A model generated the notes under the pieces. That model saw only the letters and a program-made list of their open reading frames with translations, ran no database searches and was not told the DNA's origin. A DNA stretch of 45,139 nucleotides from Marinobacterium iners DSM 11526 (lineage in GTDB: Bacteria > Pseudomonadota > Gammaproteobacteria > Pseudomonadales > Balneatricaceae). Made by a program: the position numbers and the translations under genes. The DNA lies in NCBI RefSeq assembly GCF_900107855.1, contig NZ_FNRJ01000022.1:1-45139 (forward strand). Reading direction: 5' to 3'. Positions 38,053-45,139 of the stretch are shown here, one piece after another. Every line of letters starts with the position of its first letter. Position 1 is the first letter of the stretch.

Positions 38053-38143
38053 TTTTAACCCGCAACAAGCGGGCGGAAAAGCGTAGTTGTTTGGGCTCAG
38101 TGGAGGACCAAAGGGCCGGAACTAGTTTAATTGCTTTGTTATC
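38053..38143 (-). other. attC site F
   Basis: On the minus strand it starts GATAACAAAG and ends GCGGGTTAAAAG. It shares the TTCCGG-CC-TT-GGTCCT-CAC block with attC site B. It belongs to the first GFA cassette (stop at 38149). Confidence 0.75.
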
Positions 38144-38148
38144 AATTT

Positions 38149-38547
38149 TTAATCATATTCAGTGTATTGAGGCAAATCATCTGTAATCTCAAACCAAGAG
38201 GCCTTGCTGCCTACAAACACATGGCATTTGGCCTGTACACCTGGGTCAGTATCAAGTGTTCCGAGGGGGAAGCCATAAATCTCAGGGTGTGCATCGAATT
38301 TCGTGTAGAGACTGGAGCCACAATTAGAGCAAAAACCTTTGTGCTCCCCCGGAGATGATTCATAAAACTTTATCAACTCTTGGCCCTGTATGGTGTTCCA
38401 ATCCGAGGAATTGACCTTAGCACGGGTTCTGAAGGCAGAGGCATGAAGCTTCCTACACATTGAGCAGTGACAGTGCAGAACATCTGTCAGCGGACCGTTG
38501 ATTTCGTATTGAACACCTCCACAGAGGCAACTTCCTGTTTGTTTCAT
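38149..38547 (-). CDS. Cassette GFA-family zinc protein 1
   Basis: This 132-aa protein of the GFA (glutathione-dependent formaldehyde-activating-like) family has the zinc clusters GSCLCGGVQY, CHCSMCRK and FCSNCGSSL. It is cytosolic. Activity on formaldehyde is not implied, since most GFA members have unknown substrates. It sits in a cassette with attC site F, upstream of the membrane-protein cassette. Confidence 0.88.
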   Translation of the reverse strand: MKQTGSCLCGGVQYEINGPLTDVLHCHCSMCRKLHASAFRTRAKVNSSDWNTIQGQELIKFYESSPGEHKGFCSNCGSSLYTKFDAHPEIYGFPLGTLDTDPGVQAKCHVFVGSKASWFEITDDLPQYTEYD

Positions 38548-41800: not shown

Positions 41801-41887
41801 AATATCCTTATCTTCAGGGCAGAGCCTGTCGGCGTCGATTAATGACTGGCGAAAATAGCGACTAATTCGGTTGAAATACTGGGTCAT
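38837..41887 (-). CDS. Upf1-like SF1 helicase in a cassette position
   Basis: This 1016-aa SF1 helicase has Walker A GPPGTGKTTLL (306-316), motif Ia VATSNNNQAV, motif II DEAG (710-713), motif III VGDTDQIEPV and motif V GTVHSLQGDE (930-939). Motif VI is NVAVSRAKDA (968-977). A helical insertion of about 350 residues separates Ia and II. An N-terminal about 270-aa region has no recognised domain. It resembles Upf1/AAA_12-type nucleic-acid helicases; large single-gene helicases of this class often act in phage defence, but I cannot name a defence family. Its start overlaps the stop of a short upstream frame (TAATG), and it lies between attC sites D and E. Confidence 0.85.
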   Translation of the reverse strand: MTQYFNRISRYFRQSLIDADRLCPEDKDILPVLGPDKNQDPRADYMALSASLWQQGRVDPDLAEKIIEERQPKNKPPLQQLEIVIFPRIDHLNYQTGERDQRKRRVLMPLVVFVSLQRDGSLQPTNKAPWIPRIWIGPTQSATQPFTEMGLLDAFFTQHPFEGIANWSQLTAYCTRLLCKATGETYREASDELPATQLSELAISPEYTLSDQCLLQLNTPIVGAKAKMLKVLDFMVDKGCFPKLYQIYSNRKSSKLSAYADKQDNAELAKQHVGQMSGEFPLSVKQRNVLHHFIEQESGEILAVNGPPGTGKTTLLRSVVANLWTQAALSQSEAPLIVATSNNNQAVTNILESFARIDETGLDECLKGRWLPEVDSYGLYFCSGKKANQYNPYRYAGPKGEGCMEGWQTQTFIIEAQKNFLAKAENWKQIECKSVDDALATLHKEMCATQHKIRQGFDYLEAWQLVLRSIEQQYGSVESLETSITEFKAAFTEHSQAYKQEKVLLDAVYELWESRKWWVSLLMWLPGIRKQESRKTARLLNQWDKTLEVFSDDEVEAALNQQIEGIRTKMSQLQQQLTRAEGCLSSFHLQQDNLNTWLVPAEKLALFSKTVPEQVAELNDRYYRFRLFKLATHYFEGRWLKETRAFVESNDQDKKSPFKLLRKLRRYAKLTPCFVSTFYMVPNTFMGGEFKDGSWADLPQLEEIDLLIVDEAGQALPDISAASFALAKRALIVGDTDQIEPVWSIPASVDRSNLAMFNLLEDEQDYEQWLGSGMLASSGSVMRLAQRQCHYHQFEQLQRGLYLTEHRRCFNDIVSYCNDLVYQGVLEPLRGNAKHEVPWGTMALQPVYSPSQSLGGSRGNAGEAKAIAQWLVEQHQALLAYARQQDKEFKTLDDASVLRRAVGIITPFSKQADLIRTELRNVGIEGLTVGTVHSLQGDERLIVLFSSVYGENNKDSSKFYDAGPNMLNVAVSRAKDAFIVFGDPNVFGANAAGSPSGLLRQGLVLIRGVQRAEKAN

Positions 41888-42007
41888 TACTGGCTCTTAT
41901 TAGGTGGTTTTTTGCCCAAATAATCTAAGGGGCACGCGAATTCAGCTCCCTGATGCATCCAGATGAACAGGCATGCTTTAAATTCAGTCAAGAGCCATAT
42001 GGATACA
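41888..42007 (-). other. Leader between attC D and the helicase, with a short coupled ORF
   Basis: A 23-codon reading frame (MHQGAEFACPLDYLG at its start) ends TAA, overlapping the helicase ATG as TAATG. It may allow translational coupling. It lacks a clear ribosome site and could be a remnant. Nothing else is seen. Confidence 0.35.
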
Positions 42008-42076
42008 CATAACGCTTCAATAATCGGCGCAGCTTTGCTGCGTCCGGCGCCGTAGGCGCGAAGTTGATTGACTTGT
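42008..42076 (-). other. attC site D, left part (split by IS110)
   Basis: On the minus strand the part ends GAAGCGTTATG (R' box, 42008-42018) with arms GCGCCTACGGCGCC and GCAGCAAAGCTGC. The R'' side ends at ACAAGTC (42070-42076). Rejoined with 43280-43284, TTAACAAGTCAATC forms a complete attC whose R''/L'' and L'/R' arms share TAAC and TCAAT. Confidence 0.82.
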
Positions 42077-42097
42077 ATGGATAATTCTCTGCGTTTT

Positions 42098-42290
42098 CCG
42101 GGTGAATTGGGACCCACCCTCAACGGCCATTGAGGGCCTTCATGCAGCAGCTCGGTGTAGCGCCGGCTCCTCTTGCGAGAGACCGATAACAAGTGCGTAG
42201 CGCTGCATGACTCTTTAGCGATAACTCGAACAGTCATCGGCACCCAAAGGGCATCACAGGCCCCGAGCCCGCATAGCAAGGCAGAGTTAG
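42098..42290 (+). ncRNA. Candidate bridge RNA of the IS110 element
   Basis: Hairpin 1 is CCCTCAA/TTGAGGG (42117-42123/42130-42136). A first loop has an outer stem CATGCAGC/GCTGCATG (42141-42148/42202-42209), an apical stem CTCT/AGAG (42170-42181), and TAACAAGTG (42187-42195) in the 3' internal side. That 9-mer is complementary to CACTTGTTA at the right junction (43273-43281). A second loop has ACAGTCA (42230-42236), identical to the right end next to the core (43268-43274), and CATAGCAAG (42272-42280), near-complementary to the left end. This is the IS621-type target/donor loop layout. The ends are estimates. Confidence 0.6.
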
Positions 42291-43250
<960 letters not shown>

Positions 43251-43273
43251 ATATTTAACTAGACACCACAGTC

Positions 43274-43284
43274 ACTTGTTAATG
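43274..43284 (-). other. attC site D, R'' part (right flank of IS110)
   Basis: The minus-strand CATTAACAAGT is the start of the attC split by the insertion. The stop TAA of the flanking cassette gene (43279-43281) is inside it. Confidence 0.75.
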
Positions 43285-43659
43285 TGTATTTGTGTACTCA
43301 AATGCTGTGAAAAACGGCTCTGCTTGCGGCCTATATGAAAACGATTTTTCCATAATTTCTTGGAAGCACTGAGCGAATCTAGATTCACCTTCGCGCCAAG
43401 AATATACTACAGACCCTCGTATATCTATTTGAACCACAACAATGAAGTCGGTGGGATTTGAGCTTGTTCGTTGGACACAAACCGGGAAGGCACGTGATGC
43501 AAGCTCCCCTTGAGCATTTACCAACTTCTGGATATCGGAAGAAGACAAAGCACTTTCCGAAGAGTCTGCCCTAACTTTTGCCTCATTAAATGTCAGAGGA
43601 CCAGCAGCTACCGGAATAGAAAAAGCTAGCGCCGTTAGAAGAAAAAGTCCGTATTTCAT
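43279..43659 (-). CDS. Cassette-encoded secreted protein, function unknown
   Basis: This 126-aa product has a signal peptide (MKYGLFLLTALAFSIPVAAG). The mature part has a beta-strand pattern (IVVVQIDIRGSVVYSWREGES) and two cysteines. It resembles periplasmic TonB-C-like folds only vaguely; no family is claimed. The start at 43659 is set by GGAGG 5 bp upstream, over a nearer upstream ATG. The stop lies in the R'' box of its attC, typical of a cassette. Confidence 0.65.
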   Translation of the reverse strand: MKYGLFLLTALAFSIPVAAGPLTFNEAKVRADSSESALSSSDIQKLVNAQGELASRAFPVCVQRTSSNPTDFIVVVQIDIRGSVVYSWREGESRFAQCFQEIMEKSFSYRPQAEPFFTAFEYTNTH

Positions 43660-44110: not shown

Positions 44111-44206
44111 CATAACGCCAATATTAAGCGGCGCCCGTGTAGCGCAGCGAAATGGGCGTCCGGTGTAGGACCGAAGGCCCGGAACGTACTACAACAATTT
44201 GTTAAG
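44111..44206 (-). other. attC site B
   Basis: On the minus strand it begins CTTAACAAATTG and ends GCGTTATG. It has a CGGGCC/GGTCC-type arm and a TTAATATTGG L' box. It is the clearest attC in the window and carries the stop of the second GFA gene. Confidence 0.85.
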
Positions 44207-44608
44207 TGATTCCAGGCTCTCAGGGCCGCCCTCCAATCGAACGCACTCAGCGAATTCTTGCTCCCATGGCGCGGCGGAGGCTGTGTGGAGGTGAACAGAA
44301 ACCCTTGATACGGCGAGTTCATCGAGCAAACCGGCTGGAACCCAAACCATCTCGGTGCCCCGCAGGCTATTTGGAACCGGACTTCCACAACTTGAGCAAA
44401 AATCGCTCCGGAAACCACTTGGCTTTTGGTACGACCGGATCTCGCTTTGGCCTGAGACCCAACGAAAACTAGAACCTTGCACAAATGTGGCAGCGTTAGC
44501 GGCAGCCCCAGTGGCTTTGCGGCACAGCGAGCAGTGACACTGATAGAGATTCCGTATCTCCCCATCAATTTCGAATTTCACGCTTCCGCAGAGACATTCA
44601 CCTTGCAT
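44189..44608 (-). CDS. Cassette GFA-family zinc protein 2
   Basis: This 139-aa GFA-family protein has clusters ECLCGSVKF, CHCSLCRK and FCSSCGSPV. It is about 30-35% alike to cassette protein 1 by eye, so the two are separate acquisitions rather than a recent duplication. The C-terminus (about 40 residues) is longer and differs. It is the first complete cassette at the right end. Confidence 0.87.
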   Translation of the reverse strand: MQGECLCGSVKFEIDGEIRNLYQCHCSLCRKATGAAANAATFVQGSSFRWVSGQSEIRSYQKPSGFRSDFCSSCGSPVPNSLRGTEMVWVPAGLLDELAVSRVSVHLHTASAAPWEQEFAECVRLEGGPESLESLNKLL

Positions 44609-44672: not shown

Positions 44673-45139
44673 TGATCTTCCCCCGATAAATCGGACACCT
44701 ACGCTGCTCATACCGTCATTACTTCATATTCAACTGGACTTAGGTAATTTAAGCTTGAGTGTAGTCGAACTCGATTATAAAAGTGCTGGATGTATCCGAC
44801 CAGCTTATCTCTCAGATGCATTTCGCCATAAAAGACATTTTCCTTTATCAGCTCACCTTTCAAGGTATGAAAGAACGACTCCATTTCCGCATTGTCTGTA
44901 CACATACCTGGACGGTTGGCACTGGCTAGAATTCCGTGTTGCTTTAGAAGCGACTGGATCTCGTGGGCACGGTATTCAACCCCACGATCCGTATGAAAAA
45001 TCAGACCAGGATCAGGTCGTCGGTTACGCAGCGCCATCTGTAATGAGGCCTTCGTCAGTGATACCGTCTTCTGCTTACCCAAAGACCAACCCACAATACG
45101 ACGGGAATATAGGTCGATTACCGCAGCCAGATACAGCCA
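44673..45139 (-). mobile_element. IS3-family insertion sequence, right part (runs off window)
   Basis: The element ends at 44673 with TGATCTTCCCCCGATAAATC, a TG-start terminal repeat as in IS3 elements; CCGAT-AA-ATCGG is a small palindrome inside it. It contains the 3' part of orfB. It is inserted in the attC of the cassette above GFA 2. Confidence 0.75.
44708..45139 (-). CDS. IS3-family transposase OrfB (partial)
   Basis: This is the C-terminal 143 residues of an rve-domain DDE transposase, extending beyond the right edge. The triad is visible: D in LAAVIDLYSRRI, D in FHTDRGVEY and E in NAEMESFFHTLK, and the tail HSSLNYLSPVEYE is typical. It is intact as far as seen. Confidence 0.9.
   Translation of the reverse strand, partial: WLYLAAVIDLYSRRIVGWSLGKQKTVSLTKASLQMALRNRRPDPGLIFHTDRGVEYRAHEIQSLLKQHGILASANRPGMCTDNAEMESFFHTLKGELIKENVFYGEMHLRDKLVGYIQHFYNRVRLHSSLNYLSPVEYEVMTV

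What the first reader, a model, noticed from the sequence alone, without database searches (positions are those of the whole stretch)
42098..42290. Bridge-RNA-like guide complementary to the conserved attC R'' core
The 9-mer TAACAAGTG (42187-42195) is complementary to the right junction CACTTGTTA (43273-43281). ACAGTCA (42230-42236) equals the right end immediately 5' of the core. CATAGCAAG (42272-42280) nearly complements CTTGTATG at the left end. They lie in two internal-loop stem-loops in the order target then donor, as in IS621. TAACAA is the most conserved part of attC, so one guide could address many cassettes. No clear left-target guide was found.
Basis: partly seen in the sequence, partly recalled or inferred. 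Interest (0 to 1): 0.92.

Follow-up and report, generated by a model that had tools for sequence, protein, structure and literature searches.

The report
Bridge-RNA transposon aimed at integron cassettes
A small marine-bacterial jumping element appears to carry its own guide RNA that steers it into the recombination sites of integron gene cassettes, with one guide arm fixed on the part that such sites share and the other arm varying with the individual site.

Summary
They lie upstream of the transposase gene in a 1,203-bp IS110-group insertion sequence (window 42074-43276), inserted between the R'' and L'' boxes of an integron attC site. Relatives carry the same RNA, and its stem-loops show compensatory changes (97.1% of cells paired, 10 of 34 pairs changed on both sides).

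The guides behave as guides. The right target guide is TAACCAGTG where the site reads TGGTTA or CGGTTA (6 of 6), after 4-5 separate changes. At 31 of 31 loci with a readable junction the occupied attC fits it, although neighbouring empty attCs are of both kinds (54 T, 31 G). It is hypervariable and matches the left flank across 61 insertions (269 of 427 bases against 208.9 shuffled), but fits the window's own flank poorly. Donor and handshake positions covary too.

This is a bridge-RNA element of the IS621 type. attC targeting is documented for the sister IS1111 group; here the IS110 group does it. No RNA or transposition was measured.

The parts
42010..42015 (.). TAACGC: R' end of the interrupted attC site (cassettes read on the minus strand)
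   Evidence: motif position; motif TAACG[CTA] found at 40 of 61 insertions
42065..42071 (.). left target TGATTGA = L'' box of the attC, partly complementary to the bases after TAACGC
   Evidence: L'/L'' complementarity over 40 insertions, 0 of 500 shuffles
42072..42073 (.). left core CT, derived from the target
   Evidence: left core is NT; TTGTATGG was found upstream in all 49 rows picked by the loop pattern, first core base variable
42074..43276 (+). the insertion sequence (1,203 bp, right core included)
   Evidence: ends conserved across relatives: TTGTATGG at left, CACAGTCACT at right in most
42080..42085 (+). GATAAT, -10 hexamer of the promoter formed when the ends are joined
   Evidence: GATAAT in 34 of 43 copies, read at a fixed 17-bp spacing
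42117..42136 (+). 5' stem-loop of the RNA
   Evidence: 6 of 7 pairs with changes on both sides
42142..42208 (+). target-binding stem-loop with internal loop
   Evidence: 4 of 11 outer-stem pairs with changes on both sides, 98.8% of cells paired
   Evidence: mean entropy 1.37 against 0.35 for 162 other columns; matches left flanks, 0 of 20000 shuffles on 48 insertions, 0 of 5000 on 61
42187..42193 (+). right target guide TAACA plus core guide AG
   Evidence: fifth base covaries with the target in 4-5 separate changes; 31 of 31 occupied sites fit
42194..42195 (+). handshake guide TG, complementary to donor bases CA at 43273-43274
   Evidence: first base pairs with the donor in 44 of 47 rows (T-A 38, C-G 6); second base by G-C in 36 of 47
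42210..42287 (+). donor-binding stem-loop
   Evidence: outer stem 92.6% of cells paired, no double changes
42229..42236 (+). left donor guide AACAGTCA
   Evidence: second base of ACAGTCA equals the right end in 47 of 47 rows, last base in 46 of 47
42241..42258 (+). 18-nt insert in the apical loop of the donor stem-loop, in A1 only in this copy and the second copy of the same genome
   Evidence: alignment A1
42272..42280 (+). right donor guide CATAGCAAG, a discontinuous complement of CTTGTATG at the left end
   Evidence: GCAAG invariant in A1, so not tested by covariation; discontinuous pairing is described for IS621 (PMC11208160, passages)
42294..43250 (+). IS110-family DEDD transposase, 318 aa; D16, E60, D102, D105 and an ESGS motif (S240/S242)
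   Evidence: PF01548 and PF02371, NF033542 209.7 bits against cut-off 140, ISCro4 and IS621 in the PDB, alignment shown to ISCro4, positions by motif
43260..43265 (+). TAGACA, -35 hexamer of the joined-end promoter (TTGACA in 25 of 43 copies)
43268..43274 (+). right end ACAGTCA: left side of the donor
43275..43276 (.). right core CT, derived from the donor
   Evidence: CT in 45 of 47 rows, TT 1, CC 1
43277..43281 (.). right target TGTTA, containing the R'' box of attC (TAAC on the cassette strand)
   Evidence: the same bases stand in element-free attC-like sites

Best explanation
The region is the left non-coding end of an IS110-group insertion sequence and encodes a bridge RNA. In the excised circle the two ends abut and form a sigma-70-like promoter that would transcribe it (inferred). 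The RNA has a 5' stem-loop, a target-binding loop and a donor-binding loop. In the target loop the left guide pairs with the cassette-specific L'' box of an attC site. The right guide TAACA pairs with the constant R'' box, across the NT core in the spacer between the boxes. The donor loop reads the abutted ends of the element. The DEDD/Ser transposase would cut after the core T and exchange strands, with the handshake bases TG pairing to the donor (inferred from IS621). Shown here: position, structure, guide-target and guide-donor covariation, and occupation of those neighbouring attCs that fit the guides. Inferred: transcription, binding, catalysis, and loss of the attC's activity.
For: Structure. 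Right guide against target, 43 copies with a readable right junction: 6 of 6 C with GGTTA; 31 of 36 A with TTGTTA, the other 5 of 36 at altered junctions, none at TGGTTA; the 43rd is L011. 4 changes each on the transposase DNA tree, 5 each on a protein tree; the 3 independent pairs on well-supported branches agree in both. Within-locus choice: 31 of 31 occupied sites fit the right guide against 22.2 expected, 0 of 20000; left-guide fit over 40 loci 172 against 145.8, 1 of 20000. Left guide: 0 of 20000 shuffles, 60 of 20000 when shuffled within genus groups; 0 of 5000 on 61 insertions. Donor, handshake and core. Joined-end promoter, read at a fixed 17-bp spacing: TTGACA in 25 and GATAAT in 34 of 43 copies. 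attC context: R' motif at 30 of 47 insertions against 285 of 3272 control windows. The same genome has an integron integrase, 424 bits.
Against: No transcript or transposition data. The window copy's left guide matches its own left target in only 2 of 6 non-core positions. The window RNA folded alone is not more stable than shuffles (z -0.16). The donor stem shows no double changes. Within single groups the left-guide signal is weak (Marinobacterium 698 of 5000, Marinobacter 261, Amphritea 3359, a mixed rest 206), and one copy per guide shuffled within groups gives 20-99 of 5000. 17 of 47 insertions lack the R' motif; some of these look like attC by eye, others (L014, L015, L023, L028, L045) do not, so right guide plus core may suffice. 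Independent pairs are too few for a significant sign test in any single trait; one of four handshake pairs does not differ in the donor. The wider row set was picked with a pattern that requires TAAC[AC]A[AG].
Confidence: 0.92

Rival explanations
1. Protein-only recognition: the transposase itself reads a fixed TTGTTA/attC motif and the upstream region is a leader or regulatory RNA; the matches are coincidental or shared by descent.
For: Most copies share the right target TTGTTA and the same RNA, so constant features cannot tell the two apart; the window RNA is not exceptionally stable.
Against: Guide and target change together 4-5 separate times between close relatives; the left guide is hypervariable inside an otherwise conserved RNA and tracks the flank; occupied sites fit better than neighbouring attCs.
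Confidence: 0.04
2. It is a member of the known IS1111-attC group (ISKpn4, ISPst6, ISPa25, ISPa21), whose downstream RNA does the targeting.
For: Same class of target; seekRNAs of ISKpn4 and ISPst6 match both strands of an attC end (PMC11187229, passages).
Against: The non-coding region is upstream (220 bp) and only 24 bp lie between the stop codon and the right core; no inverted repeat joins the two termini among the 25 longest of 61 pairs; the bottom-strand guide precedes the top-strand guide, the order of IS110-type ISEc21 and not of IS1111; NF033542 IS110 call.
Confidence: 0.03
3. The RNA is real but the left guide has no role: target choice needs only the right guide and core, and left-guide variation is drift.
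For: The window copy and several others match poorly at left; four M. sediminicola copies with identical transposase regions sit next to four different left flanks, all with TTGTTA at right.
Against: Left-guide match exceeds shuffles (0 of 5000) and neighbouring attCs (1 of 20000); 7 of 7 matches in L031, L039, L093 and L102.
Confidence: 0.12

Closest known systems
IS621 (IS110 group) and its bridge RNA (PMC11208160, PMC11208158: passages read)
   Same: upstream non-coding end; 5' stem-loop, target loop, donor loop in that order; left guide equal to the top strand, right guide complementary to it; core whose second base is T, cut after it; handshake bases; discontinuous right donor guide; joined-end promoter; D/E/D/D/S residues
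   Different: transposase only distantly alike (E 5.1e-28); target is integron attC, where IS621-type elements are described in REP and other sites; the right target guide is nearly constant and the left one hypervariable across the lineage
IS1111-attC elements: ISKpn4, ISPst6, ISPa25 (seekRNA, PMC11187229, passages), ISPa21 (PMC11616780, passages)
   Same: RNA-guided DEDD transposase that inserts at one end of attC sites
   Different: non-coding region downstream, longer subterminal repeats, reversed guide order; exact position in attC relative to ours not compared, because the primary papers were not read (one not held)
ISEc21 (IS110 type, PMC11187229, section read)
   Same: upstream seekRNA, bottom-strand match 5' of top-strand match
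   Different: targets a conserved stretch of certain IS3-family elements
ISEc32
   Same: best-matching named element in the 30 rows listed of 2682 plasmid records: 39% identical transposase
   Different: its target was not examined; the copy seen lies among plasmid genes beside an IS1
IS110-family insertions (ISSde13, IS110-like) in Shewanella integrons (PMC9229058, passages)
   Same: IS110-family elements inside cassette arrays
   Different: that paper says it detected no IS interrupting attC sites

Membership tests
IS110 group with bridge RNA | DEDD (RuvC-like) plus C-terminal Tnp domain with catalytic serine | tested here: met
   PF01548, PF02371; NF033542 over cut-off; D16, E60, D102, D105, S240/S242 by motif, alignment to ISCro4
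IS110 group with bridge RNA | long non-coding region upstream of tnp, short one downstream | tested here: met
   220 bp upstream, 24 bp between stop codon and right core
IS110 group with bridge RNA | covarying two-loop RNA in the left end | tested here: met
   the donor stem alone is without double changes
IS110 group with bridge RNA | target guides: bottom-strand match 5' of top-strand match, covarying with target | tested here: met
IS110 group with bridge RNA | donor guides complementary to the abutted ends | tested here: met
   left donor guide: second base 47 of 47, last base 46 of 47; right donor guide GCAAG invariant, so uninformative by covariation
IS110 group with bridge RNA | promoter formed across the circle junction | tested here: met
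   hexamers at 17 bp: TTGACA in 25 and GATAAT in 34 of 43 copies, window TAGACA/GATAAT; circles and transcription not observed
IS110 group with bridge RNA | RNA expressed and bound by transposase | not testable with these tools
   no RNA data
IS1111-attC group | subterminal inverted repeats of 7-17 bp | tested here: not met
   no terminal pair among the 25 longest of 61 inverted repeats; only CCA/TGG flank the donor
IS1111-attC group | non-coding RNA region downstream of tnp | tested here: not met
   24 bp downstream
IS1111-attC group | insertion into attC | tested here: met
IS1111-attC group | transposase in the IS1111 clade | not tested
   no named IS1111 transposase was placed in a tree

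The most novel reading that the evidence does not exclude
A lineage of IS110 bridge-RNA transposons has become a dedicated parasite of integron cassettes by splitting its target guide. The right arm is held on the R'' box that cassettes share, with two interchangeable alleles (TAACAA, TAACCA) for two attC classes. The left arm is rewritten again and again to follow the cassette-specific L'' box. The lineage therefore tracks a host's cassette repertoire, a natural case of repeated bridge-RNA reprogramming.
Probability: 0.62. Interest if true: 0.75.

Novelty: new variant of a known kind. Interest (0 to 1): 0.62.

Why it matters
Bridge RNAs are a new class of programmable recombinase guides. Natural guide-target covariation has been surveyed across IS110 elements at large (PMC11208160, PMC11208158), and two re-targeted pairs are described in PMC11187229. 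This lineage adds a focused natural experiment: 30 distinct left guides among 48 insertions on a conserved RNA, plus repeated one-base switches of the right guide with matching target switches, so that the weight of left guide, right guide, core and handshake can be compared in one system. It also indicates that attC sites, the joints of integrons, are attacked by both branches of the IS110/IS1111 family. Insertion separates R'' from L'', and the R''-L'' half is essential for cassette recombination (PMC2727003, passages).

Tried and rejected
Rfam on window 41880-43400: no bridge-RNA match; one sub-threshold miRNA hit, taken as chance. Viral contigs: no stretch matched the search patterns. Folding the window RNA alone: not more stable than shuffles, so single-sequence folding was not used as evidence. 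Extended right guide (base 5' of TAAC against the base after TTGTTA): no signal, 16 of 50 against 15.8. Hypervariable base 42196 just after the handshake: no pairing with target or RNA found. Empty-site search in the same-species genome G555: nothing rang with either flank, which the tool itself says shows little; no empty allele was seen, and neighbouring element-free attC-like sites served instead. A first attC finder failed on real sites and was replaced by the motif TAACG[CTA]. That motif misses some sites: L029, L035 and L123 look like attC by eye but are counted as missing.

Rows dropped: L011, L014 and L063 were left out of alignment A1. One search gave five rows (L028, L033, L034, L037, L117) a wrong anchor; one search repeats the test with the anchor corrected. 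In one search, 20 of 67 rows were left out (no junction read as TGTTA/GGTTA, or no open frame of 250 aa). That filter removes altered junctions, so the table, where only the 5 of 48 copies without a readable right end are missing, should be read beside it. The junction picker took a wrong downstream string for some rows (L022, L040, L079, L097), which fell to the same filter. The genus groups were typed from record titles, and 'other' is a mixture of genera.

Full report
What is there. The quoted strings are at the stated coordinates. They lie in the 220-bp region upstream of a 318-aa transposase gene (42294-43250). The transposase matches PF01548 and PF02371 and NF033542, "IS110 family RNA-guided transposase", at 209.7 bits against a cut-off of 140. 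Its solved relatives are the ISCro4 and IS621 transposases. By motif, D16, E60, D102, D105 and S240/S242 correspond to the residues D11, E60, D102, D105 and S241 named for IS621 (PMC11208158, passages). A second copy with a 93% identical transposase lies in the same genome. The nearest relatives in genome contigs are in Marinobacterium.

Ends and core. In the 48 distinct insertions with a full left flank the left end reads NT|TGTATGG with N variable. The right end reads CACAGTCACT followed by TTGTTA or TGGTTA in most. This is the IS621 pattern: the left core comes from the target, the right core from the donor, and the exchange falls after the T (PMC11208158, passages). Element-free attC-like sites in the flanks carry both TTGTTA and TGGTTA after the same kind of left arm (82 sites by pattern), so the bases to the right of the element's core belong to the target.

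The target is attC. The R' motif TAACG[CTA] stands 38-110 bases to the left of 30 of 47 insertions, against 285 of 3272 control windows of the same loci. In the wider set it stands beside 40 of 61 (no separate control). In those 40 the left flank is complementary to the bases after the motif: mean longest match 4.7 against 3.7 when shuffled, 0 of 500. The left flank is thus the L'' box, the right flank holds the R'' box, and the element sits in the spacer between them (box names after PMC2727003, passages). The genome has an integron integrase on another contig (424 bits). Of the 17 insertions without the motif some look like attC by eye (L029, L035, L123) and some do not (L014, L015, L023, L028, L045). 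L014, L015 and L045 are copies with identical transposase regions in one M. sediminicola chromosome, and all three keep TTGTTA at right.

The RNA. Thirty-eight left ends align (A1; three of 41 left out). RNAalifold gives a 5' stem-loop and a target stem-loop. With the donor stem added by hand, 97.1% of cells pair, against 93.8% shuffled and 31-47% when slid. 10 of 34 pairs have changes on both sides (0 of 500 shuffles): 6 of 7 in the 5' stem and 4 of 11 in the target stem. The donor stem has none. The left guide lies in the 5' strand of the target loop and the right guide in its 3' strand. The left guide has mean entropy 1.37 bits against 0.35 for 162 other columns. Of the nine columns of TAACAAGTG, six do not vary at all.

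Right guide. 43 of 48 copies have a readable right junction. TAACCAGTG goes with TGGTTA (5) or CGGTTA (1) in 6 of 6. TAACAA copies have TTGTTA in 31 of 36; the other five are two TTATGT, one TTGTAT, one TGTTAT and one TTGCCT, and none is TGGTTA. The 43rd copy is L011, whose guide is deleted and whose junction is TTGTTA. On a tree of the transposase DNA the guide changes 4 times and the target 4 times; on a protein tree of a wider set 5 and 5. The three independent pairs on well-supported branches agree in both trees, which is too few for a significant sign test by itself. The strongest control is within the locus. At the 31 loci with a readable junction that also hold element-free attCs, the occupied site fits the right guide in 31 of 31, while a random attC of the same locus would fit in 22.2 (0 of 20000). 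The neighbouring sites were 54 TTGTTA and 31 TGGTTA.

Left guide. The bases before the apical GG match the left flank: 164 of 336 against 123.7 shuffled, 0 of 20000. Read from that end only one register stands out; the next best, +1, reaches z 1.8-2.0 at 7-8 bases. Shuffled only within genus groups the match is reached in 60 of 20000. With one copy per distinct guide it is 0-2 of 5000, and 20-99 of 5000 within groups. Within Marinobacterium or Marinobacter alone it is not significant or borderline (698 and 261 of 5000). With relatives down to about 50% identity, 61 insertions give 269 of 427 against 208.9, 0 of 5000, letting the register slide over four positions in data and shuffles alike. 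Read from the 5' anchor two adjacent offsets stand out (z 4.6 and 4.4), as expected from guides of 7 and 8 bases, and a third (offset 6) is weaker at 8 of 1000. Four copies match at 7 of 7 (L031, L039, L093, L102). Occupied sites fit better than neighbours: 172 against 145.8, 1 of 20000; 25 loci better, 10 worse, 5 tied. The same guide in M. sediminicola L013 matches AGCGC.

Donor side. In the 47 rows with a readable junction (20 of 67 left out), the second base of the left donor guide equals the right end in 47 and the last base in 46. The first handshake base pairs with the donor in 44 (T-A 38, C-G 6; A-A 2 and C-A 1 do not), the second by G-C in 36. One relative, L159 in Vibrio, has a TT core with AA in the guide. 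Independent pairs on well-supported branches: handshake 3 concordant and 1 without a donor change, left donor guide 2 and 2 (one of these not concordant in every pairing, mean 1.9 of 2). The joined ends, read at a fixed spacing of 17 bp, give TTGACA, TGGACA or TAGACA with GATAAT in 34 of 43 copies. A promoter rebuilt at the joined ends is described for IS621 (PMC11208160, passages).

How it most likely works. The excised circle makes the RNA; the target loop reads L'' on the bottom strand and R'' on the top strand; the donor loop reads the abutted ends; the transposase cuts after the core T. Shown here: anatomy, covariation and site choice. Inferred: transcription, binding, cutting, and inactivation of the attC, because R''-L'' is essential for recombination (PMC2727003, passages).

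Known and new. Bridge RNAs, the handshake, the two-loop layout and guide-target covariation across IS110 elements are known (PMC11208160, PMC11208158: passages). attC targeting by RNA is known for IS1111 elements, with downstream RNA and reversed guide order (PMC11187229: passages, sections 12 and 10). ISPa21 in attC is reported as IS110 family, IS1111 group (PMC11616780, passages). IS110-family insertions are reported in Shewanella integrons, but that study detected none in attC (PMC9229058, passages). The present lineage fails the IS1111 tests that were run (downstream region, terminal repeats, guide order) and meets the IS110 ones; its place in a tree with named IS1111 transposases was not tested. 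I saw no report of an IS110-group lineage that targets attC in the listings, which showed 20 of 37, 20 of 21, 15 of 32, 20 of 24, 10 of 15 and 20 of 90 papers. Most subscription papers are not in that library, and ISfinder was not available. I call it a new variant: same machine, a target class documented for the sister group, and a split guide with one nearly fixed and one variable arm.

Noticed in passing
   Followed up: no
L011/L111 (Marinobacterium marinum): An 11-nt deletion removes the right target guide, yet the element lies beside TTGTTA; probably a broken copy that arrived before the deletion.
   Followed up: no
window 42241-42258 and L002: 18-nt insert in the donor apical loop, among the aligned rows found only in the two copies of this genome.
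   Followed up: no
L016 and L040, right of the element: In two genera the right junction continues as CACTTATGTGGACTCC and not TTGTTA, which suggests that the same second mobile element joined there.
   Followed up: no
   Followed up: partly
window 38149-38547 and 44189-44608: Two cassette-like genes encode GFA-domain proteins (PF04828), near TTGTTA ends at 38136 and 44199.
   Followed up: no
window 44708-45139: IS3-family transposase fragment at the end of the window, which is the end of its contig.
   Followed up: no
G000:C20:130247-130452: Remnant fragments of a diverged IS110-type transposase (56-62% identity).
   Followed up: no
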